A model generated the notes under the pieces. The model was not told the DNA's origin. It worked only from the letters and a program-made list of their open reading frames with translations, and did no database searches. 15,214 nt of DNA. Source: Candidatus Neomarinimicrobiota bacterium (GTDB lineage Bacteria > Fidelibacterota > Marinisomatia > Marinisomatales > TCS55). Location of the stretch: contig JABIDL010000038.1 of the NCBI GenBank assembly GCA_018651745.1, forward strand, positions 1 through 15,214, given 5' to 3'. The translations under genes were made by a program, and so were the position numbers. Each line of letters opens with the position of its first letter. The stretch's first letter is position 1. Positions 232 to 14,107 of this stretch are shown one piece after another.

Positions 232-855
232 ATGGACATTATTTTAGCAACACATAATCTACACAAAGTGGAAGAAATTTCTTCTAGATTAGGGGACCTT
301 CCTGTAACGTGGATGACGTTGGAAGATTTCCCTCACATTGGCGAGATTGAAGAAACTGGCTCAACATTGCTTGATAATTCTCTGTTAAAAGCTCGGACTG
401 TCAACGCAATCACTGGTTTGCCCGCATTAGCAGATGATACGGGGCTTGAAGTTGATGCCTTGGATGGTGCACCGGGAGTATATTCCGCGCGGTGGGCAGG
501 AGAAGACGCCTCTTTTGAGGATAATATCAACAAATTATTAATTGAAATGAAGTCAGTAGAACTTGAAAAAAGGACAGCCCGATTCAGAACAGTGATTTCT
601 CTTGTGGATGGTCCCACAGAAAAATGGGTTGAAGGGTGCGCCGAGGGAATCATTGCCGAGAAACCTAAAGGCAATGATGGATTTGGATATGATCCTGTTT
701 TTTTTCTTCCACAAACAGGGAAAACATTTGCGGAACTTTCTCTTGAAGAAAAAAATAGAATAAGTCATCGGGGAACCGCTTTGGAAAAATTGAGAGATGT
801 AATTAAATACCGGCTGGTCGATCAGCCCCAACACCAGGAGGATGTAAGCCTATAA
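232..855 (+). CDS. rdgB: RdgB/HAM1-type XTP/dITP diphosphatase
   Basis: This cytoplasmic house-cleaning enzyme hydrolyses non-canonical purine triphosphates (XTP, dITP, ITP) to monophosphate and pyrophosphate, keeping deaminated bases out of DNA and RNA. The 207 residues match the usual family length. The family motifs appear in order: the N-terminal nucleotide-binding ATHNxxK (T7, N9, K12), metal-ligand candidate E40, LADDTGLEVDAL with the catalytic Asp pair D68-D69, GAPGVYSARWAG (79-90), GFGYDP (150-155), and KNRISHRG (174-181). The ATG start has GAGGT at good spacing. The C-terminal tail (about 195-207) is polar and unconserved. The gene ends 67 bases before sprA on the same strand, so shared transcription is possible but not shown. 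Identification is secure; the T9SS neighbourhood is probably incidental to its function. Confidence 0.96.
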   Translation: MDIILATHNLHKVEEISSRLGDLPVTWMTLEDFPHIGEIEETGSTLLDNSLLKARTVNAITGLPALADDTGLEVDALDGAPGVYSARWAGEDASFEDNINKLLIEMKSVELEKRTARFRTVISLVDGPTEKWVEGCAEGIIAEKPKGNDGFGYDPVFFLPQTGKTFAELSLEEKNRISHRGTALEKLRDVIKYRLVDQPQHQEDVSL

Positions 856-922: not shown

Positions 923-3900
923 TTGACTAATAAGTTGATAGCAGGTCTTTTTATCCTCCTGACCATCGGGAAATCCTACGGGCAGCAGGCAGACTCCGTC
1001 CAAATTCCTTTTCCCCATCTTGTTTCGCGATTTGTAGTAAACCCATTTTTCGAAACGAAAAAAACTTTCCCTCTTTTTGCTGATACTCTTCTTATCCCCA
1101 CAGATTTGATTCCTATTCCATTTGCAAGAAAGGGGAGTGAAATCCAGATAGATAGGGAATTCGAATTCATCACAATTATACAAACTGTAGATGGATTTAT
1201 TAACAAAATTCCATTTACCGCCCCTGTGGATTGGTACGTTACGCAGATGTTTATTTCAAAGAGAAGAGAGAGTTTTATCCAAACATTTACAAGCGTAACT
1301 AAATCTGTTGCAAGCAGCACAAAATCTGGACATGGGCAGGCAATGGAAGTAATAGGCGTGGATGTTGGTGATCTTGGCAGAGTTTCTCTTCATGCAAGAG
1401 GGAATGTCAATATTTCCGGAAAAATGGTTTTCCAAGATCAGCAGCTTGTTCGATCCAGTATTAATGAAACGCAAAACACACATTTGGAGTTTGATCAAAA
1501 AGAAAATTTTAATGTCCAGGGGAAAGTTGGAGATCGCGTATCTGTATTTATGGACCACGATTCGGAACGGGATTTTGATTGGGAAAACAATATCCGGATC
1601 AAATATGAAGGCAAAGAAGATGAGATTGTTCAAAAAATAGAAGCCGGGAATGTGTCTTTAAGTTTACCCGGTTCGCAAGCATTGATGGGATCTGCCGGAC
1701 ATTCCGGACTTTTCGGGATTAAAACTATTTCCAAGTTTGGCCCCCTGGACGTAACTGCCATTGCGTCAGTGGTGGAAACGAAACGCGAGCAACAAGAATA
1801 TACCGGAAATAATGAGGCGAAAACTCAGCAGATCAAAGATACAGATTATGTAAAAAATAAATATTTTTTCATTCACGAGTTGTTTCGAAATGGGATTGAT
1901 ACTACGTTATCTGAAAGTCACCGTGTTGTTGTGCCACCGTTTTATCCACTAAATAATGGGTTACATAATATTGGATCCGTCATTGTACGAAATTTTGAAC
2001 TATATAAACTTGACAATACAACCAACTCCGAATCAGAAGAAGGAACTGCTCACGCTGATCTTAATAATCCTGATGAAAGTTTAGATCAAACCGGGAATTT
2101 TAAACGGTTGGAACTGGCACAAGAATATTCGATTGTAGAAGATCTTGGATTCATTCGGCTTCGTCAACGTGCTCAAGATGAAGTGTTTGGATGCTCATAT
2201 ATTTTAGTTGACCGCTCTTCTGGTGATACAGTTTTGACCGTTGGGGAGCCCATATCTGTAGACAATGAATTACTAAAGCTTAAAATGCTTAAACCTCGAT
2301 CTCTTACTCTAGATCATCCCACATACGATCTTATGTTTAAAAATGTGTATTACTTAGGCACAACCAAAATAAACCGCGAAGGATTTGAAGTTAGAATTGT
2401 GAACAATAGGTTGCCCGTACCAAGCCATTTAGATCCATTGGGTACACCATTTATCACTCTATTCGGGTTAGATAGTGTGGACGAAAGTGGGAATCGACAA
2501 GCCGATGAACTTATTGATATTTCTAATCCGAATATTATATCTCTAGATAATGGTGAATTGATTTTTCCTACATTTTTCCCATTTGCCAACGACTCACTTT
2601 CAGGTGGAACGGGTCATCCTGATTTGCAGGAAGTCCTAGGCACCGGTATTATGTACACTACAACCGATAGAACGCAGATTGATAATGACAGCAGATTTAC
2701 AATTGAAGTGGACTACTCCAATCAAAGTTCCACTATAAGTCTTGGTTTCATGATTGTAGAAAATAGTGAACAAGTATTAAAAAACGGTATACCACTGAAA
2801 AAAGGAATTGATTATTCTGTCGATTATTTTTCAGGAACATTGGTTTTACTAGATGAAACCGATCCGAATGCTGAAATTCGTATTTTGTTTGATAAACACG
2901 AATTGGTTTCCTTTGATAAAAAAACCATTCTAGGCGTACGAGGACAGATGGATATCAATGAGCATTCTTATCTTGGATTGACTGCTTTGTATTTTAATCA
3001 ATCGGTTATCAATGAAAAAATAGAAGTTGGTTATGAGCCAATGCGGAATTTTATGTGGGGGATGAACGGTAGAGTAGAACAGCCGCTGGATGGACTTTCT
3101 CGCTGGCTGGATAAACTACCTGTCATTGAAACGGATCGCCCATCTAGCTTTTCGGTGGAGGGCGAAATTGCCCAAATTATCCCAAATCCAAATCCTATCA
3201 ATAATTCGGCGACAGGCGATCCGGATGGAGTGGCATTTATAGACGATTTTGAAGGGGCCAAGCGGACAACCACAATTCCTATCCAGCGAAGATTTTGGAA
3301 AGAATCCTCAGCGCCGGTAGATCCAATAACCGGAAATCCAATGCGGCAGTTCAACCGCGCCAGAACCAATTGGTACAATCCATATGGGCAAGTTCGTACG
3401 AAAGATATTTGGCCCAACTTATCTACTTCTATCCGGGCTCAAAATGAAACAACGGATATTTTAATCATGAAATATACACCGCGGACGGTTCAGGCAGATA
3501 CAGATGTGGATTCCATTTGGGGAGGGATAATAACTCCTCTGTATTCTGGAGATAATGACCAAACCTCCACGAAATTTTTTGAAATTTGGGCGAAGGGATC
3601 CGGAGTCAACTTATCTATAAATCTTGGACAAATAAGTGAAGATAGAGATGGAAATGGAGAATTAAATACGGAGGATATTCCGGCTGGAGGACTGAAAGGA
3701 GATGGGATTTTACAAGATGCAGAAGATGTAGGACTTGATGGATGCAGTGATGCGCAGGAAGATGGTTGGGGCGGATGCTTACCAGACAGTATGAGTTTTT
3801 CTGATCTTTTTACATCAGGCGATACCATTCTTATCAATTCAAAAACAGTGGATGGTGGAGGTGATGTGGACCCAACGGACCCGAATGGAGACAACTGGAG

Positions 3901-6900
3901 CTATTCCGAGGGTAGCATCAATTACGATCATATTAATGGTACAGAGGGGAATGCATTGGATGCCGGAAGATATCCTGACACCGAAGATTTAGACCGGACG
4001 AATTACCCGGATATGACAAATGATTATTTTACAATAAAATTTGGGCTGGACGATGAAACGTATTTTTCCGGTGAAACCAAGGATAACGGAATTGCAACAG
4101 GATGGAAATTATATCGGGTTCCACTTGTTGATTTTTCAAAAATTGATTCATCAAAAAGTCAGGAATGGAACAACATTCAGCATATGAGGCTGGTTTTAAC
4201 CGGTGGAGACAAAAATTCCACTTCCATCGTCCAAATTGCAAAAATTGAGCTGGTTGGAAATGATTGGAAAGAAATGGGCATTGCGGCGGACACGGTGACT
4301 ACTTTTTCCAAAACGGATAGTGATAGTATTTTTGCTATATCAGTAATTAATACAGAAGATAACGCCTCATACCAACCGCCCAGCGGGGTTGAAGGTGAAT
4401 ATGATCGTATCAATCAAATCCAATCGAAAGAGCAGTCGTTGGTTCTTTCTTTTACCGATCTTCCTGCAGGGAATAAAGGCGCTGCAATGAAATCCGGCAT
4501 GACGCTTTCAGGTGATCGTGCCAAAAGTTATTTGACATATGATAGAATGAAAATGTATATCTACGGTCTTGAAAGTAATTGGGTAAAATCTGTTGAAACC
4601 GATGTAGAGTTTTTCCTTCAGTTCGGATTCGAAGGAAATTATTATGAAGTGACTCAACCAGTTTATGCCGGATGGGATGAAACGGTTGGAAGGAATTCCA
4701 TTGATCTTGATCTCAATTGGCTTTCAGCACTCAAATTGACAGATGCTGAAACTAGGAAAATCAGGGATTCAGATATTATCACAGATTCTTCCGGCGTAAA
4801 GGAATACCAGTTTACGGATGAGTCCGAAAATCCAACCGGGAAGCGAATAAAAATTGTCGGTTCCCCCGCCCTAAATCGAATCCAATTTTTTATTGCAGGA
4901 ATCCAAAACAAATCAGATGGACCCATCACAGGTGAAATTTGGATAGATGAACTCAGGCTGAGCGGGGTAAAAAAGGATAAAGGTGTTTCTTTGCGGCTAT
5001 CTTCAAAATTTACATTGGCAGATATTATGAATACTTCTTTTGCCTACAACAGGCAGGATGCAGATTTTCATACGCTTCAGCAACGGCTTGGATCTAATAA
5101 TACTACGGAACGTATCAATGTTAATTCCAGTTTCTCTCTTCACAAATTTTTACCAAAAACATGGGGTATCAGTATCCCATTATCAACCTCTTTCGCACAA
5201 TCAGTAAGCACTCCCAAATACTTTCCCGGCCAAGATATTCTCGTGGATGAAGGCAGTCCGCCGGATTCCATTTTATCTAAATCTCAATCTGTGAATCTGA
5301 GCCTAAAACTTTCCAAAACTTCCCGATCGGATAATAGTTTGGTTAAGTACACGCTGGATAAGGTGACAGCGTCCATCAATTCAGCAAAGAGTGTTTCCTC
5401 TGATGCCATCCAGAAAGAAGTTTTAAATCAATCTTATTCCGGGAAAATTAGTTATGCGTTACCCTTTGGTAGAGATAATTATTTTTCACCATTCAAATGG
5501 CTTGAATCAATTCCATGGGTTGGGGGCAAGCTTGCCGAAACCCATATTTATTATACACCAACCTCCGTCAACACGTCTGCTTCCTTCAGTGAAAAGTTGA
5601 CCCAAAAAACTTCGCGCGTCGGTGGAAAGTCTCCCGATATTTATAATCTTGGGTTGAGCCGTGATTTTTCAGTTGATTATTCTTTGACTGACAATATTAG
5701 AAATAAATACTCTTGGAATGCCAAAAGTGATATGGATGATTATCGTGGGTATGCGTGGCTTGCCTTGAAGAATACTGATCCTGGGATTGTTACGGATGTT
5801 ACTGAATCTTTCACGACATCCTTTTCGCCCACTATTTTTTCTTGGCTAAAACCCAACCTGAATTATTCTGCCGGATATAGATGGAATCAGAACCTTGATA
5901 GCAATGTGGATGGTGCGAATATTGGAACTCAGTTGCGGTTTTCTTCCAGTGTCAGCCTTACACCCAAAACGCTAGTTGAATTAATTTACAAACCCGGTGG
6001 TAAAGCTGCAGCATCCAACCAAAAGAGAGGAAGAGGAAGACCTTCAGAAAAAAATGAAGAAACAGTTTCAGAGCCCGAAGAACCGAAAAAGGATAATATT
6101 ATTTTAGCATCCATACACAAATTTATGGGAAGAATTAATCCAATTAGTGTCAGCTATACAGAAAATCTGAGCCGGACTGGACAGGGTGTGCAAGGCGAAG
6201 TTCCGCTTGGATATAAATTTGGATGGCTGCCGGATCACGGTCTTTCACATTCTGAAAAGGTGGGAACAAATATTGGAAGTTGGACTCATAAAAGAGACTT
6301 AAGTATGCGAAGTGGTTTCAAGTTTGGGAAAAATATAACGACCAGTTTTAATTTCACTCAAAATCTTGGTAGAAGCATTAGCGGTGGCGGGGTCGAACAG
6401 CAAAATTTAACTCGTGATTTTCTTGCTTATGGAGAAAGTTTGGAAAATGGTTTCCCATTCTCAGGCTGGAGTCTTCGGTGGTCAGGTGTTGAAAAATGGC
6501 CCATCATTAACAAAATTGCCAAAAGCGCTTCATTGGAGCATGCATTAACAGGAAAAGAAACTCGCTCTTGGCAGTTTGATCAGGGGACACCCATCGCAAC
6601 GTCCTTTTTAAAATTGAGTAATTATATTCAAGCAAATAAAGATTTTGAAAGAACGTCAAGAATCAGTCAAAGTTTTTCTCCTTTGGTGGGTTTAACCATG
6701 AGCTTGAACCACGGTGTATCTATGTCGTTACGCCACAATAAATCTCGATCGGTAGAAGGATCCTATAATGGTGGGCAAAAAGTATTCAATGATCAGTCCG
6801 TTACAGCAACAGCAAGCTACAGCCATAGAGGCGGCTTCACCATTCCTTTGGTGTTCTTTCGAGATTTCAGTATTCAAAACACAGTAAACTTCAGTTTAAA

Positions 6901-7129
6901 TTTTGATATGTCAGAAAGTGAAATAAAACAGAAGACGCTGACTGCAGAGAAATTTGCGCTGACTGCTTTTAATACCAGTTGGCACGCTGCTTTTAGAGTG
7001 ACTTATACCTTTAATTCAAAGGTCACAGGTTCGATGGTTTATGAATATCGGGAGTCGGATTCCATGACGACCGGAAAAAAGGTCGATCGCGATTTTGGTT
7101 TTGATGTTAATATAGCAATTACGGGTTAG
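923..7129 (+). CDS. sprA: SprA/Sov-type outer-membrane translocon of the type IX secretion system
   Basis: SprA (Sov in Porphyromonas) is the giant single-chain outer-membrane barrel through which T9SS cargo leaves the cell. This copy has 2068 residues, somewhat shorter than the roughly 2400-2500 of flavobacterial and Porphyromonas homologues. A signal peptide is visible (K4, hydrophobic 5-16, SYG before Q21), predicting a mature protein starting Gln-Gln. Family landmarks are GNVSLSLPGSQ (242-252) followed by GLFGIKT, then FIDDFEGAKR (772-781) and WIDELRLSGV (1340-1349). The C-terminal third has alternating strand-like segments rich in Ser, Asn and aromatics. An EF-hand-like Asp-rich loop (907-918) precedes a Cys pair (C941, C952). 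A charged insert at about 1695-1725 carries KRGRGRP. The start is TTG: an in-frame stop at 902-904 excludes upstream ATGs, no downstream ATG would keep the signal peptide, and the leader is A-rich without a close Shine-Dalgarno. The next gene begins 6 bases after the stop. Confidence 0.94.
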   Translation: MTNKLIAGLFILLTIGKSYGQQADSVQIPFPHLVSRFVVNPFFETKKTFPLFADTLLIPTDLIPIPFARKGSEIQIDREFEFITIIQTVDGFINKIPFTAPVDWYVTQMFISKRRESFIQTFTSVTKSVASSTKSGHGQAMEVIGVDVGDLGRVSLHARGNVNISGKMVFQDQQLVRSSINETQNTHLEFDQKENFNVQGKVGDRVSVFMDHDSERDFDWENNIRIKYEGKEDEIVQKIEAGNVSLSLPGSQALMGSAGHSGLFGIKTISKFGPLDVTAIASVVETKREQQEYTGNNEAKTQQIKDTDYVKNKYFFIHELFRNGIDTTLSESHRVVVPPFYPLNNGLHNIGSVIVRNFELYKLDNTTNSESEEGTAHADLNNPDESLDQTGNFKRLELAQEYSIVEDLGFIRLRQRAQDEVFGCSYILVDRSSGDTVLTVGEPISVDNELLKLKMLKPRSLTLDHPTYDLMFKNVYYLGTTKINREGFEVRIVNNRLPVPSHLDPLGTPFITLFGLDSVDESGNRQADELIDISNPNIISLDNGELIFPTFFPFANDSLSGGTGHPDLQEVLGTGIMYTTTDRTQIDNDSRFTIEVDYSNQSSTISLGFMIVENSEQVLKNGIPLKKGIDYSVDYFSGTLVLLDETDPNAEIRILFDKHELVSFDKKTILGVRGQMDINEHSYLGLTALYFNQSVINEKIEVGYEPMRNFMWGMNGRVEQPLDGLSRWLDKLPVIETDRPSSFSVEGEIAQIIPNPNPINNSATGDPDGVAFIDDFEGAKRTTTIPIQRRFWKESSAPVDPITGNPMRQFNRARTNWYNPYGQVRTKDIWPNLSTSIRAQNETTDILIMKYTPRTVQADTDVDSIWGGIITPLYSGDNDQTSTKFFEIWAKGSGVNLSINLGQISEDRDGNGELNTEDIPAGGLKGDGILQDAEDVGLDGCSDAQEDGWGGCLPDSMSFSDLFTSGDTILINSKTVDGGGDVDPTDPNGDNWSYSEGSINYDHINGTEGNALDAGRYPDTEDLDRTNYPDMTNDYFTIKFGLDDETYFSGETKDNGIATGWKLYRVPLVDFSKIDSSKSQEWNNIQHMRLVLTGGDKNSTSIVQIAKIELVGNDWKEMGIAADTVTTFSKTDSDSIFAISVINTEDNASYQPPSGVEGEYDRINQIQSKEQSLVLSFTDLPAGNKGAAMKSGMTLSGDRAKSYLTYDRMKMYIYGLESNWVKSVETDVEFFLQFGFEGNYYEVTQPVYAGWDETVGRNSIDLDLNWLSALKLTDAETRKIRDSDIITDSSGVKEYQFTDESENPTGKRIKIVGSPALNRIQFFIAGIQNKSDGPITGEIWIDELRLSGVKKDKGVSLRLSSKFTLADIMNTSFAYNRQDADFHTLQQRLGSNNTTERINVNSSFSLHKFLPKTWGISIPLSTSFAQSVSTPKYFPGQDILVDEGSPPDSILSKSQSVNLSLKLSKTSRSDNSLVKYTLDKVTASINSAKSVSSDAIQKEVLNQSYSGKISYALPFGRDNYFSPFKWLESIPWVGGKLAETHIYYTPTSVNTSASFSEKLTQKTSRVGGKSPDIYNLGLSRDFSVDYSLTDNIRNKYSWNAKSDMDDYRGYAWLALKNTDPGIVTDVTESFTTSFSPTIFSWLKPNLNYSAGYRWNQNLDSNVDGANIGTQLRFSSSVSLTPKTLVELIYKPGGKAAASNQKRGRGRPSEKNEETVSEPEEPKKDNIILASIHKFMGRINPISVSYTENLSRTGQGVQGEVPLGYKFGWLPDHGLSHSEKVGTNIGSWTHKRDLSMRSGFKFGKNITTSFNFTQNLGRSISGGGVEQQNLTRDFLAYGESLENGFPFSGWSLRWSGVEKWPIINKIAKSASLEHALTGKETRSWQFDQGTPIATSFLKLSNYIQANKDFERTSRISQSFSPLVGLTMSLNHGVSMSLRHNKSRSVEGSYNGGQKVFNDQSVTATASYSHRGGFTIPLVFFRDFSIQNTVNFSLNFDMSESEIKQKTLTAEKFALTAFNTSWHAAFRVTYTFNSKVTGSMVYEYRESDSMTTGKKVDRDFGFDVNIAITG

Positions 7130-7135
7130 CAGGGT

Positions 7136-8035
7136 ATGAAACACATTTGGATCACATTATTTTTTATTTGTTCAGCATGCACAGAAAATAAGCAGGTATT
7201 CTCGGGTGAATCTGCTTTTGGGTATTTGGAAAAACAGTGTTCATTCGGACCGCGAAATCCAGAATCCGTAGGTCATTCAGCGTGCAGAGAATATTTGACG
7301 GAACAACTTTTAGCTACAGCAGATACGGTTTGGCATCAGAATTTTATGTTGATGGTTCCGGGTGAATCACAGAAATCCAACCTCACAAATATTATTGCTA
7401 GATTTAATCCAGATGCAGAAAAACAAATTTTATTGGGCGCCCATTGGGATACCCGACCCTGGGCAGATCAAGATTTTGAATTACAATCCAAGCCGGTACT
7501 TGGCGCAAACGATGGAGCCAGTGGTGTAGCTGTCCTTTTGGAATTAGCAGATATTCTTTCCAAGGCGCCAACCTCGGTTGGAGTTACAATTGTGTTATTC
7601 GATGCAGAAGATTTTGGTTCTGCCGGCAATCCAAAATCATTCGCTCGAGGTTCGCAATATTTCGCAAAACATTTGCCGATACCAAAACCAGAGTATGCAA
7701 TAATATTGGATATGGTAGGTGACGCAGAACTTAATTTATTAATTGAAAGAAATTCTTTTAGACAAAATCGCCAATTGGTTAAAGAACTATGGGCGCTTGC
7801 AAAAGACCTTCAATTACCGGCATTCCTTCCTTCCATCCGCCATACAATTTTTGACGATCACGTTCCGCTTTATGAATTTGCCGGCATTCCAGCCATCGAT
7901 ATAATTGATTTTGATTATCCCAATGCACATCAAAATTATTGGCACACGCATCAAGATACTCCAGATAAGTGTTCGCCAGAGAGCCTAGAACAGATTGGCA
8001 CACTTTTAGTGCATCATATTTATGGTATCAAATAA
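7136..8035 (+). CDS. M28-family glutaminyl-peptide cyclotransferase-like lipoprotein
   Basis: Glutaminyl cyclases convert an N-terminal Gln of exported proteins to pyroglutamate, using a single-zinc M28 aminopeptidase fold. The 299 residues begin with a short hydrophobic segment ending ICSAC, so C15 may be lipidated, although the lipobox is imperfect (Cys at -3). Motifs in order are FGPRNPESVGH (38-47), GAHWDTRPWAD (101-111), LGANDGASG (122-130; D126 a zinc ligand), FDAEDFG (155-161; E158 acid/base, D159 a zinc ligand), LDMVGD (191-196; D192), FDDH (239-242; D241) and WHTHQDTPD (269-277; W269, H270 a zinc ligand). These match the order of the human catalytic residues E201/E202, D248, D305 and W329-H330, with Asp replacing Glu at the second site as in bacterial type II cyclases. 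A true M28 aminopeptidase remains possible. The gene lies 6 bases after sprA, and its stop overlaps the next start (TAATG). Confidence 0.85.
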   Translation: MKHIWITLFFICSACTENKQVFSGESAFGYLEKQCSFGPRNPESVGHSACREYLTEQLLATADTVWHQNFMLMVPGESQKSNLTNIIARFNPDAEKQILLGAHWDTRPWADQDFELQSKPVLGANDGASGVAVLLELADILSKAPTSVGVTIVLFDAEDFGSAGNPKSFARGSQYFAKHLPIPKPEYAIILDMVGDAELNLLIERNSFRQNRQLVKELWALAKDLQLPAFLPSIRHTIFDDHVPLYEFAGIPAIDIIDFDYPNAHQNYWHTHQDTPDKCSPESLEQIGTLLVHHIYGIK

Positions 8036-8850
8036 TGGATAAGGTTTACTTTCATTGCATGCGTATTTGGGTAACTGCGGGGTTCCTATTATTTTTCAAC
8101 AGTTGCGGGAAGACCGATCCGACTGTAGAAAGTAACCCTGTAACAAATGTCACCTTTTCTTACATCCAGTCTGCGAATAAACTTTATTTCTCGGCTGAAT
8201 GCGCGTCTGCTTATTCAGGATCTTCGCTTGATTCGGTGAATGTTTATTGGTTTGGTACGGATTCTTCCACTACTGCCGATACTATCCGATTAATGGATAA
8301 CAGCATGAGTGGAGATATAATTGCCAATGACGATGTGTATGCTGTTAAGGTGCTCAATGATACTACTTCAATAAAAAATACTATTTCGGTTTCAGATACG
8401 CATTCAGTTTATTTTTCGCTGGTAGCCGGGTATGGTTCGAATATTGATTTAACGACATTTTCGACATCTATTTCTAATTCCGGGCCTTCGATTACATCGG
8501 TTTCAATGCCGGATTCTTTGAAAAAGTTAGGTGGTGACAGCTTGGCAATATCAGTCATGGTTGTCTCCGCAGATGACCCTGACGGTTATGAAGATGTCAA
8601 ATCCTGCTATCTAATGTTTCAAAAACCGGACGGGACTTATTCTAGCGGGAGCCCTATTTCTCTTTACGATGATGGTGTAAGCAATCCGACATATTATTTA
8701 TGGGACGAAACAGCAAATGATGGAAAATTTTCACGATATATCACGATTGATTCAGGGAACGCCTCCGGAACTTACAATGCTTATTTTTATGTTCGCGATT
8801 ATGCCGGGATAGAATCTTCAGCTTATCTCAAAACGCTTGTGGTGTACTAA
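8035..8850 (+). CDS. uncharacterised lipoprotein with two Ca-site-like beta-sandwich repeats
   Basis: I do not recognise a named family. The ATG at 8035 overlaps the previous stop as TAATG and gives 271 residues. An internal ATG at 8059 gives a tidier signal peptide starting MRIWVTAGFLLFF. Both lead to the same lipobox-like FNSC, with C24 (long form) as the likely lipidated residue, so an outer-membrane or periplasmic lipoprotein is expected. The remainder appears to contain two related units. Unit one (about 65-107) contains LMDNSMSGDIIANDDVY; unit two (about 184-238) contains LYDDGVSNP and DETANDGKFS. The shared pattern, a D-D/N-x turn, then GD or ANDG and an aromatic strand, resembles secreted-protein domains of the choice-of-anchor X type. 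Its place between the cyclase and the PorZ-like gene, with start/stop overlaps on both sides, suggests coordinated expression with the T9SS. The function is unknown. Confidence 0.8.
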   Translation: MDKVYFHCMRIWVTAGFLLFFNSCGKTDPTVESNPVTNVTFSYIQSANKLYFSAECASAYSGSSLDSVNVYWFGTDSSTTADTIRLMDNSMSGDIIANDDVYAVKVLNDTTSIKNTISVSDTHSVYFSLVAGYGSNIDLTTFSTSISNSGPSITSVSMPDSLKKLGGDSLAISVMVVSADDPDGYEDVKSCYLMFQKPDGTYSSGSPISLYDDGVSNPTYYLWDETANDGKFSRYITIDSGNASGTYNAYFYVRDYAGIESSAYLKTLVVY

Positions 8851-10499
8851 TGAGATTTTTTCTACTTACTTGGTTTGTTTGGGTGACATTGGCAAAAGCA
8901 TCTGATCCAGTTTTGGCAAAAGAATTCAAAATTGATAACAGAGTATTCAATAAAATATCTGTATCGGTTGACAGTCTAACAGAAGGGTTACAAAGTAACG
9001 TGATTGCAGAAATTCAATTGCAGGGAGATAGTCTTGTTTGGATCGGAACAGGTTCAGGTTTGTCATTGCTCAGGGATTCTGTTTCTGTGGTCACATTTTC
9101 AACCGGATCGTCATTTACCGAAGGTGGTTCAACTGATTTTCTTCCTTCAGGTGGAATATCCGCGATAGCCGCATCTAACGACACACTCTTTGTTGCCACA
9201 GCAACTACAAGTGGATCAAATAATCCAATGGGTAACGGGTTTGTGTGGTCAACAAATTCAACGGATACAACTATAACTTGGACCTATTTCAGTCAGCCGA
9301 CCGAAGCTGCTGCAGATTCTCTTCCACCATTTGCAGGAAAATTTTTCAAAGCACTTCCTGTTACTGTGGAAGAATTTAATGTGACTTACGATGCATCTAT
9401 TGCAGGGAATTATATTTGGATTACAAGTTGGGCCGGTGGACTTAGGCGGTACGATATTGTTAACAATTCTTGGGGACGCGTTCCGCTTCCAAAAGACAAT
9501 CAAACCGATCTGAATACTTGCGACACCACTTTATATGGAAAAACAGGAGAATTCACAATTCTAGAAGATTTTTATCTCAATCCTCGAAATCCCTCAGAGG
9601 GTGGGAATCATAATCATAAAGCATTTTCCGTTTTGGCATATTCTGACACAATATGGGTTGGAACAGCAAACGGAATCAACCGAGGTATTTTAGGGACAAA
9701 AGGGTGTGTTGATTGGAACCATTATGCATACCCAATGGAAAACTTGACGGGGAATTTTGTAGTCTCATTGGCTCGGCAGGATTGGAATGGTCAAAGGATT
9801 ATTTGGGCAGCGACCTTAAATGCAGATGATCCTACTGAGACGAGAGGATTAAGCTATACCACGAACGATGGCGGGACGTGGATTACTACGCTGATCGATA
9901 AGCGTGTTTACAATGTTATAGCACATGATTCCCTGGTTTTCGCTGTTACCAACGATGGAATTTGGAAATCGGAAGACGGAAAAACATGGGCAAAGTTCAA
10001 AGGAATAAATCAGGCAACTCCTATTAGTGTATTTTATTATGATCTGGATGAAATATTGACAAGTGACATGTTTTCCGTCGCGTTTGACAGCCGATCGTAT
10101 TATCCATCCCATGCTTTGTGGATTGGGTCCATGGATGGATTAGCTAGATCATCAAATTTAGATGGTTCAAATTGGAAAATATACCGAGCAAATTTTGACC
10201 CGGCTGATGTATATGCTTATCCGAATCCTTTTTCTCCCGATGTCCATAATGTGCTTGATGGCGACGGGTATGTTCGGTTTCATACCGATGTTAAAGAATC
10301 TTATGTTATCAATGTGTCTGTGTATAATTTTGCAATGGAATTGGTTTATTCGAGCGAATACGATCGCAGAGAAAATAGTGGAGCGTTAAAATGGAACGGA
10401 CGCGATAACCGAGGGAATTTGGTTTCAAATGGTTCATATTTTGTCCGCCTTGAATACGATTCAAAATCTGAATGGGTTAGTTTGATTGTGATCAAATGA
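8850..10499 (+). CDS. PorZ-like beta-propeller protein with a T9SS type A C-terminal domain
   Basis: PorZ is a surface component of the T9SS attachment complex, built of beta-propellers plus a sorting-type C-terminal domain. The 549 residues start with a signal peptide (hydrophobic 3-14, cut near AKA-SDP, residues 17-18). Propeller-type blade motifs recur: VWIGTGSGLSLLRD (63-76), TLFVATAT (112-119), IWITSWAGGLRRYD (189-202), IWVGTANGINRG (268-279), IIWAATLN (317-324), VFAVTNDGIWKSEDG (363-377) and LWIGSMDGLARS (423-434). The tail has AYPNPFSPD (456-464), a WNGRDNRGN turn (515-523), NGSYFVRLEY (527-536) and a final VSLIVIK, matching the FlgD-like fold of type A sorting domains. It is shorter than P. 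gingivalis PorZ, so it may have fewer blades. It starts by TAATG overlap and ends by ATGA overlap with the PorV-like gene. It could instead be an ordinary propeller cargo protein; the operon context favours PorZ. Confidence 0.75.
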   Translation: MRFFLLTWFVWVTLAKASDPVLAKEFKIDNRVFNKISVSVDSLTEGLQSNVIAEIQLQGDSLVWIGTGSGLSLLRDSVSVVTFSTGSSFTEGGSTDFLPSGGISAIAASNDTLFVATATTSGSNNPMGNGFVWSTNSTDTTITWTYFSQPTEAAADSLPPFAGKFFKALPVTVEEFNVTYDASIAGNYIWITSWAGGLRRYDIVNNSWGRVPLPKDNQTDLNTCDTTLYGKTGEFTILEDFYLNPRNPSEGGNHNHKAFSVLAYSDTIWVGTANGINRGILGTKGCVDWNHYAYPMENLTGNFVVSLARQDWNGQRIIWAATLNADDPTETRGLSYTTNDGGTWITTLIDKRVYNVIAHDSLVFAVTNDGIWKSEDGKTWAKFKGINQATPISVFYYDLDEILTSDMFSVAFDSRSYYPSHALWIGSMDGLARSSNLDGSNWKIYRANFDPADVYAYPNPFSPDVHNVLDGDGYVRFHTDVKESYVINVSVYNFAMELVYSSEYDRRENSGALKWNGRDNRGNLVSNGSYFVRLEYDSKSEWVSLIVIK

Positions 10500-11431
10500 A
10501 GATTCCAAAAAATCAGATTTGGTATTTAATCATTTTCGGCTCAATTGCGGCTACGGATTATTCAGGATACAGTGGATCCTTTCTAAGAATGGGAACAACC
10601 GCAAGGGCGATTGCAATGGGAAGCGCATTTACTGCAGAACTCGATTATGGGTTTTCTGCTTATTACAATCCGGCAGCAACAGCTTTTGTAGAATCGAAAA
10701 GAGTAAATTTTGCGCACCAGTCGCTGTCATTGAATCGAAGATTAATTGCCGCATCTTATTCTATGAATCTTCCACCAACTGCGGGCATTGGAATTTCGTG
10801 GGTTAGCGCCGGGACAGATAAAATTGATGGCCGTTCAACCTCTGGACAGCACACCCAATATTTATCCACAAGTGAAGATGCGCTCATGGTCACCTTTGCT
10901 CAAAAACTGCGATCGTGGTTTGCCATGGGAATCAATGTGAAGATTCTGTACCACCAATTACCAATGAATTCAGATAATTTAACTGGTAGCGGGATTGGAT
11001 TTGATATGGGCGTGATGATTCGTGGAGGGAATATGCCATCGCTTGCTCTTATGGTTCAGGATTTGAATTCAAGTTACAATTGGAATACTACAACCGTATT
11101 TGAGGAACAGGGAAAATCCTACAAAGAACAGTTTCCGACGATTTACAGAATAGGATCTACTTATACGCTTGGTCAATTTTATTTTGTTGGCGATTTAGGT
11201 GTTGTTACAGATTCAGAATCACTGCTTGGTTATGCAATGAGAGTTGGCACAGAATATACTTATAAGGATCGGTATTTTTTGCGAGCTGGGTACGGTAATT
11301 CGAGAGCTTCGCTTGGTGCAGGTCTGAATTGGTCTTTTCTCAATCAAAATGATGCATACCTTGATTATGCATTTGTCATAGAATATCCGGCAGGCTCTGG
11401 ACATATATTTACGTATGCGATTCATTTTTAA
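10496..11431 (+). CDS. PorV-like outer-membrane protein (PorV/PorQ family)
   Basis: PorV-type proteins are 14-stranded FadL-like barrels. They shuttle T9SS cargo from the SprA channel to the attachment complex. The 311 residues contain a signal peptide (hydrophobic 8-18) and the family N-terminal signature SFLRMGTTARAIAMGSAFTA (28-47), followed by SAYYNPA (54-60). Further barrel-strand features are SWVSAG (101-106), GIGFDMGV (166-173), SLALMVQDL (182-190) and RVGTEYTY near the end. The chain ends in HF, an aromatic terminal residue typical of barrels inserted by BamA. It overlaps the PorZ-like gene by 4 bases (ATGA) and the PorQ-like gene by 17 bases. Assignment to the PorV/PorQ family is firm; calling it PorV rather than another member rests on this context and on the RMG-x-x-AR-A-x-x-MG motif. 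Confidence 0.82.
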   Translation: MKIPKNQIWYLIIFGSIAATDYSGYSGSFLRMGTTARAIAMGSAFTAELDYGFSAYYNPAATAFVESKRVNFAHQSLSLNRRLIAASYSMNLPPTAGIGISWVSAGTDKIDGRSTSGQHTQYLSTSEDALMVTFAQKLRSWFAMGINVKILYHQLPMNSDNLTGSGIGFDMGVMIRGGNMPSLALMVQDLNSSYNWNTTTVFEEQGKSYKEQFPTIYRIGSTYTLGQFYFVGDLGVVTDSESLLGYAMRVGTEYTYKDRYFLRAGYGNSRASLGAGLNWSFLNQNDAYLDYAFVIEYPAGSGHIFTYAIHF

Positions 11432-12290
11432 TTCACTGATTTTCTCAGGATTCCTTTTGTCCGGGGCAGGATCGATCGGGACAGGATTTTTATCGCTTCC
11501 TACATCTGCATCCGAACTTTCTCTTGGTCAAAACCCCGTTTTTGGATTAACCAATTGGACAAACCCGGCCATTGGGGCCAACCAAAATTCGCAATCTTAT
11601 TTGAATGTATCGTACGGAAGTTGGTTAAGCGGAGTTCGATCTTTCAAGCTGAGCGTTGGATCAAATTTGGGGAGTTATAAATCAGGATATAGGATTAGGC
11701 ATGTCAGTCTTAATGATTTGGAATATCGAACCGACCGACCAACCGATGAACCATTAGCATCTTTTGGTGCGAGTGGAACTGCAATTGATTTTCATCTAAA
11801 CAAATCATGGGAAAAGTTAAATGCTGGAATAGCATTGCGGTGGATCTATATGGATATGTACACAGAAAATTCGCAAGGAATTTCACTGGATATGGGTGGG
11901 ATTTTCTCAATCGGGAAAAAACTAAAAATTGCCGTTAGCTTGTTAAATCTTGGAACGATGAACGCTTTCAAATCTGATAACCCTACTCTTCCGACCCGTA
12001 TTTTGGCAGGAATTTCAACACAATTAAACCCGGGATTAATGTCGATTGAAATATCGGCTAGCGGAGAATACAATTCTCATGTTTCCGGAATCATATCCGG
12101 ATTAGCAGGACAAATGCGTGTGGGGAAACTCATTATTAATTCAGCGGTTAGGTCATCGGATAATGTAATAACACTTTCCGGCGGTGTCGGGCTCTCGCTT
12201 GGGATGTACAGTCTTAACTATGGATTATTATACGGAACCCATCAACTTGGTTTACCCCAAATGATTGACCTTTCTATAAGGTTGCCATAG
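11415..12290 (+). CDS. PorQ-like outer-membrane protein (PorV/PorQ family)
   Basis: PorQ is the second barrel of the T9SS attachment complex and anchors the surface parts to the outer membrane. The 291 residues begin with a signal peptide (hydrophobic 7-18). The N-terminal signature GFLSLPTSASELSLGQN (24-40) and TNPA (49-52) follow, then DLEYRTDRPTDEP (101-113) and FGASGTAIDFHL (117-128). The latter stretches resemble PorV/PorQ-family proteins of Ignavibacteria-like lineages. GISLDMGG (155-162) and LLNLG (176-180) recall the matching segments of the upstream PorV-like protein, as expected for paralogues. The C-terminus (IDLSIRLP) lacks a terminal aromatic residue, unlike its neighbour. The ATG lies inside the last codons of the PorV-like gene in another frame, giving a 17-base overlap that implies coupled translation. 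The family is firm; the PorQ identity is inferred from order and from the FLxLPxSA motif. Confidence 0.75.
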   Translation: MRFIFNSLIFSGFLLSGAGSIGTGFLSLPTSASELSLGQNPVFGLTNWTNPAIGANQNSQSYLNVSYGSWLSGVRSFKLSVGSNLGSYKSGYRIRHVSLNDLEYRTDRPTDEPLASFGASGTAIDFHLNKSWEKLNAGIALRWIYMDMYTENSQGISLDMGGIFSIGKKLKIAVSLLNLGTMNAFKSDNPTLPTRILAGISTQLNPGLMSIEISASGEYNSHVSGIISGLAGQMRVGKLIINSAVRSSDNVITLSGGVGLSLGMYSLNYGLLYGTHQLGLPQMIDLSIRLP

Positions 12291-12293
12291 GTT

Positions 12294-13127
12294 ATGGGAA
12301 AAACCTCGGACAATCAGAAAAAAATTATTTATTTTTTAGCCGTCATTGTACTGGCTTTTGGAGTTAAATATGTATTATCCATTCGTGACGAACCAGTTCG
12401 TACTACTGATGAATCCCCCGACATATATATAAAAGGCCAAGTGTCTGTTGATTCAATAAGGCATCGTGGATCCATTGCCATAATTATTGATGATTTTGGT
12501 TACCGAAATGATAAAGTGTCTGAAGGGTTCTTAAAGATAGATGCGTCCTTAACTTATGCGATTATCCCCGGGCACGAATATAGCCAATCGTTTTCCTCAA
12601 GAGCGAAGCAAAAGGGGTATGAAGTTATTGTTCATATGCCTTTTGAATCCCGGTTTAAAACCAAAGGTGAAAGAGAGTATATTCTTGAAACAGATATGAC
12701 AAGTGAGGAATTGGAAATCAGAATAAATAAGGTACTTCGTCATTTGCCGGAGGCAGTAGGAATGAACAACCATCAAGGGTCAAAAACCAGCGCAGATAAA
12801 CGCGTGATGGGGATTTTGGCTTCTATATTAAAACGAAATGGGAAATATTTTATTGATAGCCGGACTACAAAAGAAACCGTTGCAGAAGTGACGATGCGAA
12901 ACCATCAAGTCCCGACAAATCGTCGGCACGTATTTTTAGATAATCAGGATAATATTGATTTAATAAAAACTCAATTGAAAGAACTTATTCAGAAAGCGGA
13001 AATTTTAGGAGTAGCTGTTGGAATTGGACATGCAAAGGAAAAAACCCTTACGGCGCTGAAAGAAATGATTCCTAGGATCCAAACTGAAGGCTACGATTTT
13101 GTTTTTGCATCGGAAGTGACAAACTGA
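12294..13127 (+). CDS. divergent polysaccharide deacetylase, YibQ/DUF610 type, membrane-anchored
   Basis: Members of this family have a NodB-like barrel and are presumed to act on envelope polysaccharide, though the substrate is generally unknown. The 277 residues start with a basic N-terminus and one transmembrane segment (about 11-30), so the enzyme is probably tethered in the inner membrane facing the periplasm. Family motifs in order are IAIIIDDFGY (61-70; catalytic D66-D67), YAIIPG (88-93), VIVHMPFE (111-118; H114), GMNNHQGS (156-163; N159, H160), YFIDSRTT (185-192), RRHVFLDN (210-217) and VGIGHAKEKTLTAL (242-255; H246). The metal and catalytic residues appear intact. It follows the PorQ-like stop after 3 bases and its own stop overlaps the next start (TGATG). 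A role in trimming cell-wall glycans for envelope complexes is conceivable, but nothing here shows it. Confidence 0.88.
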   Translation: MGKTSDNQKKIIYFLAVIVLAFGVKYVLSIRDEPVRTTDESPDIYIKGQVSVDSIRHRGSIAIIIDDFGYRNDKVSEGFLKIDASLTYAIIPGHEYSQSFSSRAKQKGYEVIVHMPFESRFKTKGEREYILETDMTSEELEIRINKVLRHLPEAVGMNNHQGSKTSADKRVMGILASILKRNGKYFIDSRTTKETVAEVTMRNHQVPTNRRHVFLDNQDNIDLIKTQLKELIQKAEILGVAVGIGHAKEKTLTALKEMIPRIQTEGYDFVFASEVTN

Positions 13128-14107
13128 TGGGAATTCTTTGCAAAGTATTAAGAAATGATTACACCGAAAGCATTCATGTCGCATACGCTGTTGCGGTGGA
13201 TGAAAATGGTAAGGTTTTATTTGCATCGGGCGACCCTGATTATATTACTTTCGTTCGTTCATCTCTCAAGCCCTTTCAGGCAGCAGCAGTAGTTGAGAAG
13301 GGTGCAACAAAGGATGCTAATTTTTTGCCGGATGAATTAGCGCTTATGTGCGCTTCTCACAATGGCGAGGACATTCATGTGAAAACTGCACAATCTATGC
13401 TGAATAAATTAGGACTTGATGCATCAGCCTACGAATGTGGAATTCATCCGCCGTATGATCAAGACACCCGCAATCAAATGTTAAAGGATGGGAAAGAATG
13501 GTCCGCGCTAAATAATAACTGCAGTGGGAAACATGCCGGAATGCTTTCACTTGCATTGAAGTTGGGTGTAGATCCGGCAGGATATACGAAAAAAGATCAT
13601 CCGGTTCAGGAAAAAATATTTGAAAAACTTACAGATTTAACCGGAATACAAAATTTTCCAACCGGAATCGACGGTTGCAATGTTCCTGCACCCATGTTGT
13701 CGTTAAAAACGATTGCCGGTCTTTTCCAGAAATTGGCATCCGGAAAAGATGCTTCACTCAACACTTTATTTGAAGCGATGACTTCCCATCCTTATCTTGT
13801 TGCCGGAGAAAAAAGATTTGATACGGATTTTATCACCGCACTAAATGGACGCGCAGTTACCAAAGTTGGAGGAGAGGCTATTCGCGGTGTGGGTATTCAA
13901 ACTCAAAATGGTGAATCAATCGGTATAGCCATAAAGGTACTGGATGGAAATCAAAGAGCAGCACCTGTGGCGACAATGAAGTTTTTGGAGCATCTGAAAC
14001 TTTTATCTAATGTAGAAATCCAATACTTAGATACTTACAGGACAAGTATATTAAAAAACCATAAACAAATTGAAATCGGCCGAATTAAAGCTGATATAGA
14101 ATTCTAG
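13127..14107 (+). CDS. L-asparaginase, Rhizobium etli type (PF06089 family)
   Basis: This family hydrolyses L-asparagine to aspartate and ammonia and is unrelated to E. coli asparaginase II. It has a serine-beta-lactamase-like fold. The 326 residues show no signal peptide, so the enzyme is cytoplasmic. Visible active-site motifs are RSSLKPFQAA (44-53; S45 and K48 spaced as in the catalytic S-x-x-K), CASHNGED (75-82; S77), NNNCSGKHAG (129-138; C132, K135, H136), GIDGCNVPAP (180-189; D182, C184) and TKVGGE (245-250; K246). Their order and spacing agree with the R. etli enzyme, in which two Cys and a Lys hold a metal ion. The ATG overlaps the deacetylase stop by one base, and the next gene starts directly after its stop, so it is embedded in the operon. 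It has no known T9SS link. Confidence 0.92.
   Translation: MGILCKVLRNDYTESIHVAYAVAVDENGKVLFASGDPDYITFVRSSLKPFQAAAVVEKGATKDANFLPDELALMCASHNGEDIHVKTAQSMLNKLGLDASAYECGIHPPYDQDTRNQMLKDGKEWSALNNNCSGKHAGMLSLALKLGVDPAGYTKKDHPVQEKIFEKLTDLTGIQNFPTGIDGCNVPAPMLSLKTIAGLFQKLASGKDASLNTLFEAMTSHPYLVAGEKRFDTDFITALNGRAVTKVGGEAIRGVGIQTQNGESIGIAIKVLDGNQRAAPVATMKFLEHLKLLSNVEIQYLDTYRTSILKNHKQIEIGRIKADIEF

What the first reader, a model, noticed from the sequence alone, without database searches (positions are those of the whole stretch)
923..12290. Compact T9SS operon joining the translocon, a glutaminyl cyclase and an attachment-complex set
Six consecutive plus-strand genes encode SprA, an M28 glutaminyl-cyclase-like lipoprotein, an unassigned lipoprotein, a PorZ-like protein, and PorV- and PorQ-like proteins. 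In well-studied Bacteroidota these functions are, as far as I know, mostly scattered across the chromosome. Here the channel, an N-terminal processing enzyme and the cargo-receiving barrels are packed with gaps of 0-6 bases. This layout predicts that they are made together and suggests the lipoprotein and cyclase belong to the machine.
Basis: partly seen in the sequence, partly recalled or inferred. Interest (0 to 1): 0.65.

Follow-up and report, generated by a model that had tools for sequence, protein, structure and literature searches.

The report
Secretion channel gene paired with glutamine-capping enzyme
Across a whole little-studied bacterial phylum, and in a second lineage, the gene for the outer-membrane channel of the type IX protein secretion system sits directly beside the gene for an enzyme that caps the front end of exported proteins, which suggests the two are made together and makes a disputed link between them testable.

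Summary
SprA (769 bits, cut-off 200) is followed on one strand by a type II glutaminyl cyclase (QC), a lipoprotein, a beta-propeller protein with a T9SS-type C-terminal domain (PZ), and two PorV/PorQ-family barrels (PV, PQ), with gaps of +6 to -17 bases; three further genes continue the run. SprA and QC hold. PZ, PV and PQ belong to the right superfamilies but are not the attachment complex: better PorZ, PorU and PorV candidates lie elsewhere in the same genome. New here: (i) rdgB-sprA-QC is kept throughout the phylum (QC directly after sprA in 60 of 61 loci with room) and sprA-QC in a second lineage (13 of 15), but in 0 of 18 Bacteroidota and Gemmatimonadota loci; (ii) QC is this genome's only type II cyclase, and signal-peptidase substrates show Q at +1 at 26% against 3.7% background (13 of 28 T9SS cargo proteins by eye), so the "Bacteroidetes Q-rule" operates here too; (iii) PZ-PV fits a recurrent "CTD protein + downstream PorV-family barrel" pair. 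Most likely: a secretion operon coupling translocon and pyroglutamate capping, plus a surface propeller protein with its own shuttle. No transcript or enzyme data; structure predictions failed.

The parts
232..855 (+). rdgB/HAM1 non-canonical purine NTP pyrophosphatase; housekeeping, but conserved directly upstream of sprA in this phylum
   Evidence: PF01725 220.6 bits, TIGR00042 185 bits over cut-off; 58 of 65 sprA loci
923..7129 (+). SprA/Sov, T9SS outer-membrane translocon; predicted signal-peptide cut ...KSYG^QQADS exposes Gln
   Evidence: TIGR04189 769 bits, cut-off 200; SprA of F. johnsoniae 6h3j 4.2e-65; N-terminus
7136..8035 (+). QC: type II (M28-family) glutaminyl cyclase, predicted lipoprotein (lipobox CSAC); D126, D159, H270 align with the zinc ligands, E158, D192, W269 with catalytic/pocket residues
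   Evidence: 6qro glutamine cyclotransferase 6.8e-52; residues invariant in 18 homologues; only strong QC hit in the genome
8035..8850 (+). LP: lipoprotein (invariant lipobox Cys24) with two tandem DDG...GD..DG.YS modules (choice-of-anchor-X-like)
   Evidence: no Pfam match; structure prediction failed, pLDDT 36
8850..10499 (+). PZ: signal peptide + beta-propeller region + C-terminal FlgD/T9SS-type Ig domain (YPNPFSP motif); PorZ-like architecture but shorter, not the PorZ orthologue
   Evidence: profile A2 hits BT4663-type propellers 4a2l 2.5e-21, PorZ 5m11 8.6e-5, PorU 6za2 C-terminus 0.0085; PorZ equivalog 26 bits vs cut-off 260
10496..11431 (+). PV: PorV/PorQ-family outer-membrane barrel, proposed shuttle/anchor for PZ
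   Evidence: NF033709 102.8 bits over cut-off 90; PorV equivalog only 46 vs 250; profile vs PorV 6h3i_F 7.5e-12
11415..12290 (+). PQ: second, more divergent PorV/PorQ-family barrel
   Evidence: PorQ 50.6 vs cut-off 220, PorV_fam 48.6 vs 90; profile vs PorV 6h3i_F 8.7e-20; 24 of 30 orthologues hit PorV_fam and PorQ models
12294..13127 (+). divergent polysaccharide deacetylase (PF04748), usual next gene in the window's order
   Evidence: 213 bits; 23 of 33 loci of the order
13127..14107 (+). L-asparaginase II-type protein (PF06089); often present, probably a passenger
   Evidence: 357.9 bits
14108..15214 (+). secreted endonuclease/exonuclease/phosphatase + lamin-tail domain protein, runs off the contig

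Best explanation
This is a secretion/envelope operon built on a conserved rdgB-sprA-QC core. SprA is the T9SS translocon. QC, a periplasm-facing lipoprotein, cyclises the N-terminal glutamine that signal peptidase I exposes on exported proteins, including SprA itself and about half of the T9SS cargo, and so caps them against aminopeptidases: the Q-rule, here outside Bacteroidota. Co-transcription would keep capping capacity in step with translocon supply. PZ is a surface beta-propeller protein that leaves the cell through SprA by its own C-terminal domain; PV, encoded immediately downstream, is its dedicated PorV-family shuttle/anchor, with PQ a second barrel and LP a lipoprotein partner of the same surface unit. 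Shown by computation: gene content, conservation, SprA and QC identity at sequence level, Q enrichment, paralogy of PZ/PV/PQ. Inferred: co-transcription, QC activity, the PZ-PV partnership, LP's role.
For: SprA and QC identity. QC directly after sprA in 60 of 61 loci with room in the phylum and 13 of 15 in a second lineage; the SprA tree puts the two in separate supported clades (0.967 and 1.0). The two lineage members without the pair have no type II QC at all. The window QC is the only strong QC in G000. Q at +1: 22/85 in G000 (26%, p 4e-13 against 3.7% at +2..+10), 64/231 in relatives (p 6e-40), E. coli 2/21 (p 0.47); 13/28 T9SS-CTD cargo proteins by inspection. T9SS looks complete enough to be in use in this genome: 52 CTD proteins and PorU at 582 bits. 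PZ-PV pairing: 4 of the 8 PorV-family genes lie directly downstream of a CTD-coding gene, like sprF downstream of type B CTD genes in F. johnsoniae, where the barrel is the cognate shuttle (PMC12618676).
Against: The cluster also carries housekeeping genes (rdgB nearly always, prmA in many classes, asparaginase), so adjacency alone does not prove functional coupling. QC in Bacteroidota acts on most exported proteins, not just T9SS ones, and mutagenesis in P. gingivalis argued against a role of pyroglutamate in T9SS targeting (PMC5837995). My signal-peptide caller is home-made; Q at +1 in G000 is not significantly above E. coli by Fisher test because the E. coli sample is small (p 0.15). Two lineage members without type II QC still show Q after the SprA signal peptide (L334, L335), perhaps through a type I QC, not tested. 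No transcript, protein or enzyme data. The GldM search was empty and uninformative.
Confidence: 0.6

Rival explanations
1. Housekeeping/envelope super-operon: rdgB, sprA, QC and prmA are simply old neighbours held together by expression level or drift; QC is the general Q-rule enzyme and has no special tie to T9SS; PZ/PV/PQ are an unrelated surface cassette inserted downstream.
For: rdgB and prmA are part of the conserved run; Q enrichment is seen in general signal-peptidase substrates, not only T9SS cargo; PZ/PV/PQ are missing beside sprA in f19 and g21.
Against: In the second lineage rdgB is not beside sprA, yet sprA-QC still is in 13 of 15, so the pair outlives its housekeeping neighbour; members without the pair have lost type II QC altogether.
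Confidence: 0.3
2. One reading: channel, N-terminal enzyme and the PorZ-PorV-PorQ attachment complex in one operon.
For: Family-level matches of PV and PQ to PorV/PorQ and of the PZ profile to PorZ 5m11.
Against: All three are far under the equivalog cut-offs; better PorZ (C33, 176 bits), PorV (C26, 188 bits) and PorU (C33) candidates exist in the genome, and five PorV-family proteins score above PV.
Confidence: 0.07
3. The M28 protein is an aminopeptidase/carboxypeptidase that trims secreted proteins rather than a cyclase.
For: M28 is mainly a peptidase family; NCBIfam gives only weak aminopeptidase matches.
Against: Best structural relatives by far are bacterial type II QCs (6qro 6.8e-52 against 1.7e-11 for aminopeptidase 2ek8); Asp in place of the third zinc ligand and Trp before the His ligand, the QC marks of PMC7948796, are invariant; Q enrichment supplies its substrate.
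Confidence: 0.05

Closest known systems
T9SS translocon SprA-PorV of Flavobacterium johnsoniae (6H3I)
   Same: SprA homologous over most of its length; PorV-family barrels encoded beside it
   Different: Here sprA sits in an operon-like run with QC; the neighbouring barrels are divergent paralogues, the better PorV candidate being elsewhere
PgQC / TfQC (PG_2157) and the Bacteroidetes Q-rule (PMC5837995, PMC10653852, PMC7948796)
   Same: Type II lipoprotein QC with the same zinc and catalytic positions; Gln enriched right after signal-peptidase I sites
   Different: In P. gingivalis QC is in an operon with PG_2158-hemG; the Q-rule was described as a Bacteroidetes feature, though single high-Q species such as Ignavibacterium album were noted. 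Here Q frequency is lower and QC is locked to sprA
PorZ (5M11) of the attachment complex
   Same: beta-propeller of the BT4663 type followed by a T9SS C-terminal domain
   Different: 549 aa rather than about 776; matches the PorZ model only at the C-terminal end; a full-length PorZ candidate (792 aa) exists at C33
Type B CTD substrate + downstream SprF/PorP-like shuttle pairs (PMC12618676)
   Same: substrate gene directly followed by an outer-membrane barrel gene
   Different: here the barrel is PorV-family rather than PorP/SprF-family and the CTD is FlgD_ig/type A-like

Membership tests
T9SS translocon SprA/Sov | match to TIGR04189 over cut-off across most of the model | tested here: met
   769 bits vs 200, three stretches
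T9SS translocon SprA/Sov | genome carries CTD cargo and a PorU sortase | tested here: met
   52 TIGR04183 matches; PorU 582 bits
T9SS | PorLM/GldLM motor | tested here: inconclusive
   no GldM match, but no control genome rang either
Type II glutaminyl cyclase | closest to QC structures rather than aminopeptidases | tested here: met
Type II glutaminyl cyclase | zinc ligands Asp/Asp/His, catalytic Glu and Asp, Trp in pocket | tested here: met
   D126, D159, H270, E158, D192, W269 invariant in 18 sequences; roles from PMC7948796
Type II glutaminyl cyclase | pocket Phe four residues before the Trp (PgPhe294) | tested here: inconclusive
   F259 is invariant but offset by an insertion
Type II glutaminyl cyclase | cyclises N-terminal Gln | not testable with these tools
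   needs an enzyme assay
PorV orthologue | NF033710 over cut-off 250 | tested here: not met
   46 bits; a different protein (L161) reaches 188
PorV/PorQ family (broad) | NF033709 over cut-off 90 | tested here: met
   PV 102.8 bits; PQ only 48.6, but its profile finds PorV at 8.7e-20
PorQ orthologue | NF033711 over cut-off 220 | tested here: not met
   PQ 50.6, PV 44.7; other paralogues reach 79-95
PorZ orthologue | NF052228 over cut-off 260, two propellers + CTD | tested here: not met
   26 bits, C-terminus only; the C33 protein has 176 bits over the whole model
T9SS CTD protein (PZ) | C-terminal T9SS-type Ig domain | tested here: inconclusive
Bacteroidetes-type Q-rule | Gln strongly enriched at +1 after signal peptidase I sites | tested here: met
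   26% vs 3.7% background; 46% in CTD cargo; lower than the values typical of Bacteroidetes (above 48%, mean 71%, PMC5837995)
Bacteroidetes-type Q-rule | Gln converted to pyroglutamate in vivo | not testable with these tools
   needs N-terminal proteomics

The most novel reading that the evidence does not exclude
N-terminal pyroglutamate capping is a built-in step of type IX secretion in these lineages: QC is made with and perhaps held at the translocon, so that SprA, its accessory barrels and its cargo are capped on the way to the channel. The old coincidence of T9SS with the Q-rule would then reflect a real coupling whose gene linkage Bacteroidota have lost.
Probability: 0.3. Interest if true: 0.75.

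Novelty: new variant of a known kind. Interest (0 to 1): 0.58.

Why it matters
The 2018 Q-rule paper noted a striking phylogenetic coincidence between T9SS and high Q-values, then set it aside, and the 2023 follow-up describes the rule as applying to Bacteroidetes but not other phyla (PMC5837995, PMC10653852). A sprA-QC gene pair conserved through one phylum and in a second lineage, together with Q enrichment there, reopens that question with a concrete test system. It also gives a marker locus for T9SS outside Bacteroidota (31 of 31 relatives and all 94 good-quality genomes of the phylum have a sprA match), including 0.7-1.0 Mb streamlined genomes, and points to PorV-family barrels as gene-paired shuttles.

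Tried and rejected
AlphaFold of LP and PZ as single sequences gave pLDDT 36 and 31 and was discarded; no fold search was run on them. PZ as PorZ, PV as PorV and PQ as PorQ were rejected on cut-offs and better paralogues. The GldM search was uninformative. The first Q-rule script was replaced by a stricter one. Literature searches for T9SS in Marinimicrobia and for SprA+PorV+QC found nothing relevant. The unassigned ~280-aa gene between QC and LP in many relatives is PrmA, so probably a passenger.

Full report
What is there. The window is one whole contig (G000:C38) of a 1.86 Mb, 43-contig genome. The six genes claimed are all present and on one strand. Spacings are +6, -1, -1, -4, -17; the run continues with PF04748, PF06089 and an EEP+LTD gene at +3, -1 and 0, and is preceded by rdgB. 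No promoter or terminator signal above shuffled expectation was found.

Identity of the parts. SprA scores 769 bits against TIGR04189 (cut-off 200) and aligns with F. johnsoniae SprA. The M28 protein is closest to bacterial type II glutaminyl cyclases (6qro, 6.8e-52) and far from aminopeptidases. D126, D159 and H270 align with the zinc ligands (Asp in place of the human Glu is the bacterial QC mark), E158 and D192 with the catalytic residues and W269 with the pocket Trp; all are invariant in 18 homologues (roles from PMC7948796). LP has an invariant lipobox Cys and two repeated modules. PZ is a propeller protein: its profile finds the BT4663-type sensor propellers (2.5e-21), PorZ (8.6e-5) and the PorU C-terminus; PorZ itself was compared with BT4663 when its structure was solved (PMC5121618). 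PV passes the broad PorV/PorQ family cut-off; PQ does not, but its profile finds PorV at 8.7e-20.

Not the attachment complex. None of PZ, PV, PQ approaches the equivalog cut-offs. The genome holds eight PorV-family proteins found by that model, five scoring above PV; one at C26 reaches 188 bits in the PorV model, and others reach 79-95 in the PorQ model. A 792-aa protein at C33 scores 176 bits over the whole PorZ model, about 20 kb from the PorU sortase (582 bits). These are the likelier attachment-complex genes, though PorV and PorZ candidates are themselves under the curated cut-offs.

Conservation. sprA occurs in 31 of 31 relatives and 193 of 199 genomes of the phylum, 94 of 94 of good quality. 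In the neighbourhoods fetched QC directly follows sprA in 60 of 61 loci with room; the exception is L106. The median sprA-QC gap is 2.5 bases and no pair is on opposite strands. LP, PZ, PV and PQ follow in most loci, with PrmA inserted before LP in many classes. They are missing in f19 (L091, L092, L094) and in the streamlined genus g21 (L107, L108), where sprA-QC remains.

Outside the phylum. A motif scan gave named sprA loci. In 18 loci from Bacteroidia, Rhodothermia/Balneolia, Ignavibacteria, Kapabacteria, Thermochlorobacteriaceae and Gemmatimonadota with usable flank, no partner gene lies beside sprA (some flanks are short). Where these genomes have a type II QC it is unlinked. One record, 'bacterium RSWS12', and its relatives form a second sprA clade in which sprA-QC is adjacent in 13 of 15; two members without it (G236, G247) have no type II QC at all. 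rdgB is not there, so the pair is older or tighter than its housekeeping context.

Q-rule. QC needs an N-terminal Gln. In a 400 kb sample of G000 a signal-peptide caller that ignores Gln at +1 finds Q there in 22 of 85 candidates (26%) against 3.7% at +2..+10; in relatives 64 of 231; in E. coli 2 of 21. The caller misses several obvious ...FLS^Q sites, so this is low. By inspection 13 of 28 CTD cargo proteins have Q at +1, and so do many SprA proteins including the window's. Bochtler et al. reported more than 48% in nearly all Bacteroidetes, below 9% in most Chlorobi, and a continuum elsewhere; they noted the T9SS coincidence but argued against a targeting role (PMC5837995). Szczesniak et al. 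found QC essential in P. gingivalis and the capping stabilising (PMC10653852).

Mechanism. Best reading: co-production of translocon and capping enzyme, capping protecting exported proteins including T9SS parts and cargo. For PZ-PV, four of eight PorV-family genes in this genome sit directly downstream of a CTD-coding gene, the arrangement of type B substrates with SprF-like shuttles, where the barrel is needed for secretion (PMC12618676). I therefore propose PV as PZ's shuttle. Shown: gene content, conservation, family placement, Q enrichment. Inferred: transcription, activity, partnership.

Verdict. Observation confirmed; interpretation half right; the surprising part is the phylum-wide sprA-QC pair together with a Q-rule outside Bacteroidota. 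New variant of a known kind.

Noticed in passing
L064:8135-11218 (-), i.e. G000:C28: A 1,027-aa protein without Pfam/NCBIfam match carries a ~75-aa SprA-like segment (TIGR04189 about 581-657, 'YDYTIDYSTGELYF'); proteins of 1,020-1,300 aa with the same segment turn up in most sprA genomes of several phyla, here beside an Omp85-type barrel. Possible undescribed T9SS-associated family.
   Followed up: partly
L107, L108 (genus g21, 0.7-1.0 Mb genomes): Strongly streamlined genomes keep sprA-QC next to each other while PZ/PV/PQ are gone from the locus.
   Followed up: partly
L111, L112, L113 (family f16): SprA proteins of 2,764-3,268 aa, much longer than the usual ~2,070.
   Followed up: no
G190:C9:2506-9399: A Bacteroidota-like sprA (2,361 bits) in a genome of this phylum; probably a contaminating contig.
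   Followed up: no
G109:C52 and G109:C32: Two nearly full sprA matches in one genome with about 5% contamination; duplication or mixture.
   Followed up: no
L163, L164, L165, window 10203-11425: PorV-family genes repeatedly lie directly downstream of genes with FlgD/T9SS-type C-terminal domains; candidate substrate-shuttle pairs.
   Followed up: partly
G000 genome: 52 T9SS type A CTD matches in a 1.86 Mb genome, a large secreted load for so small a genome.
   Followed up: no
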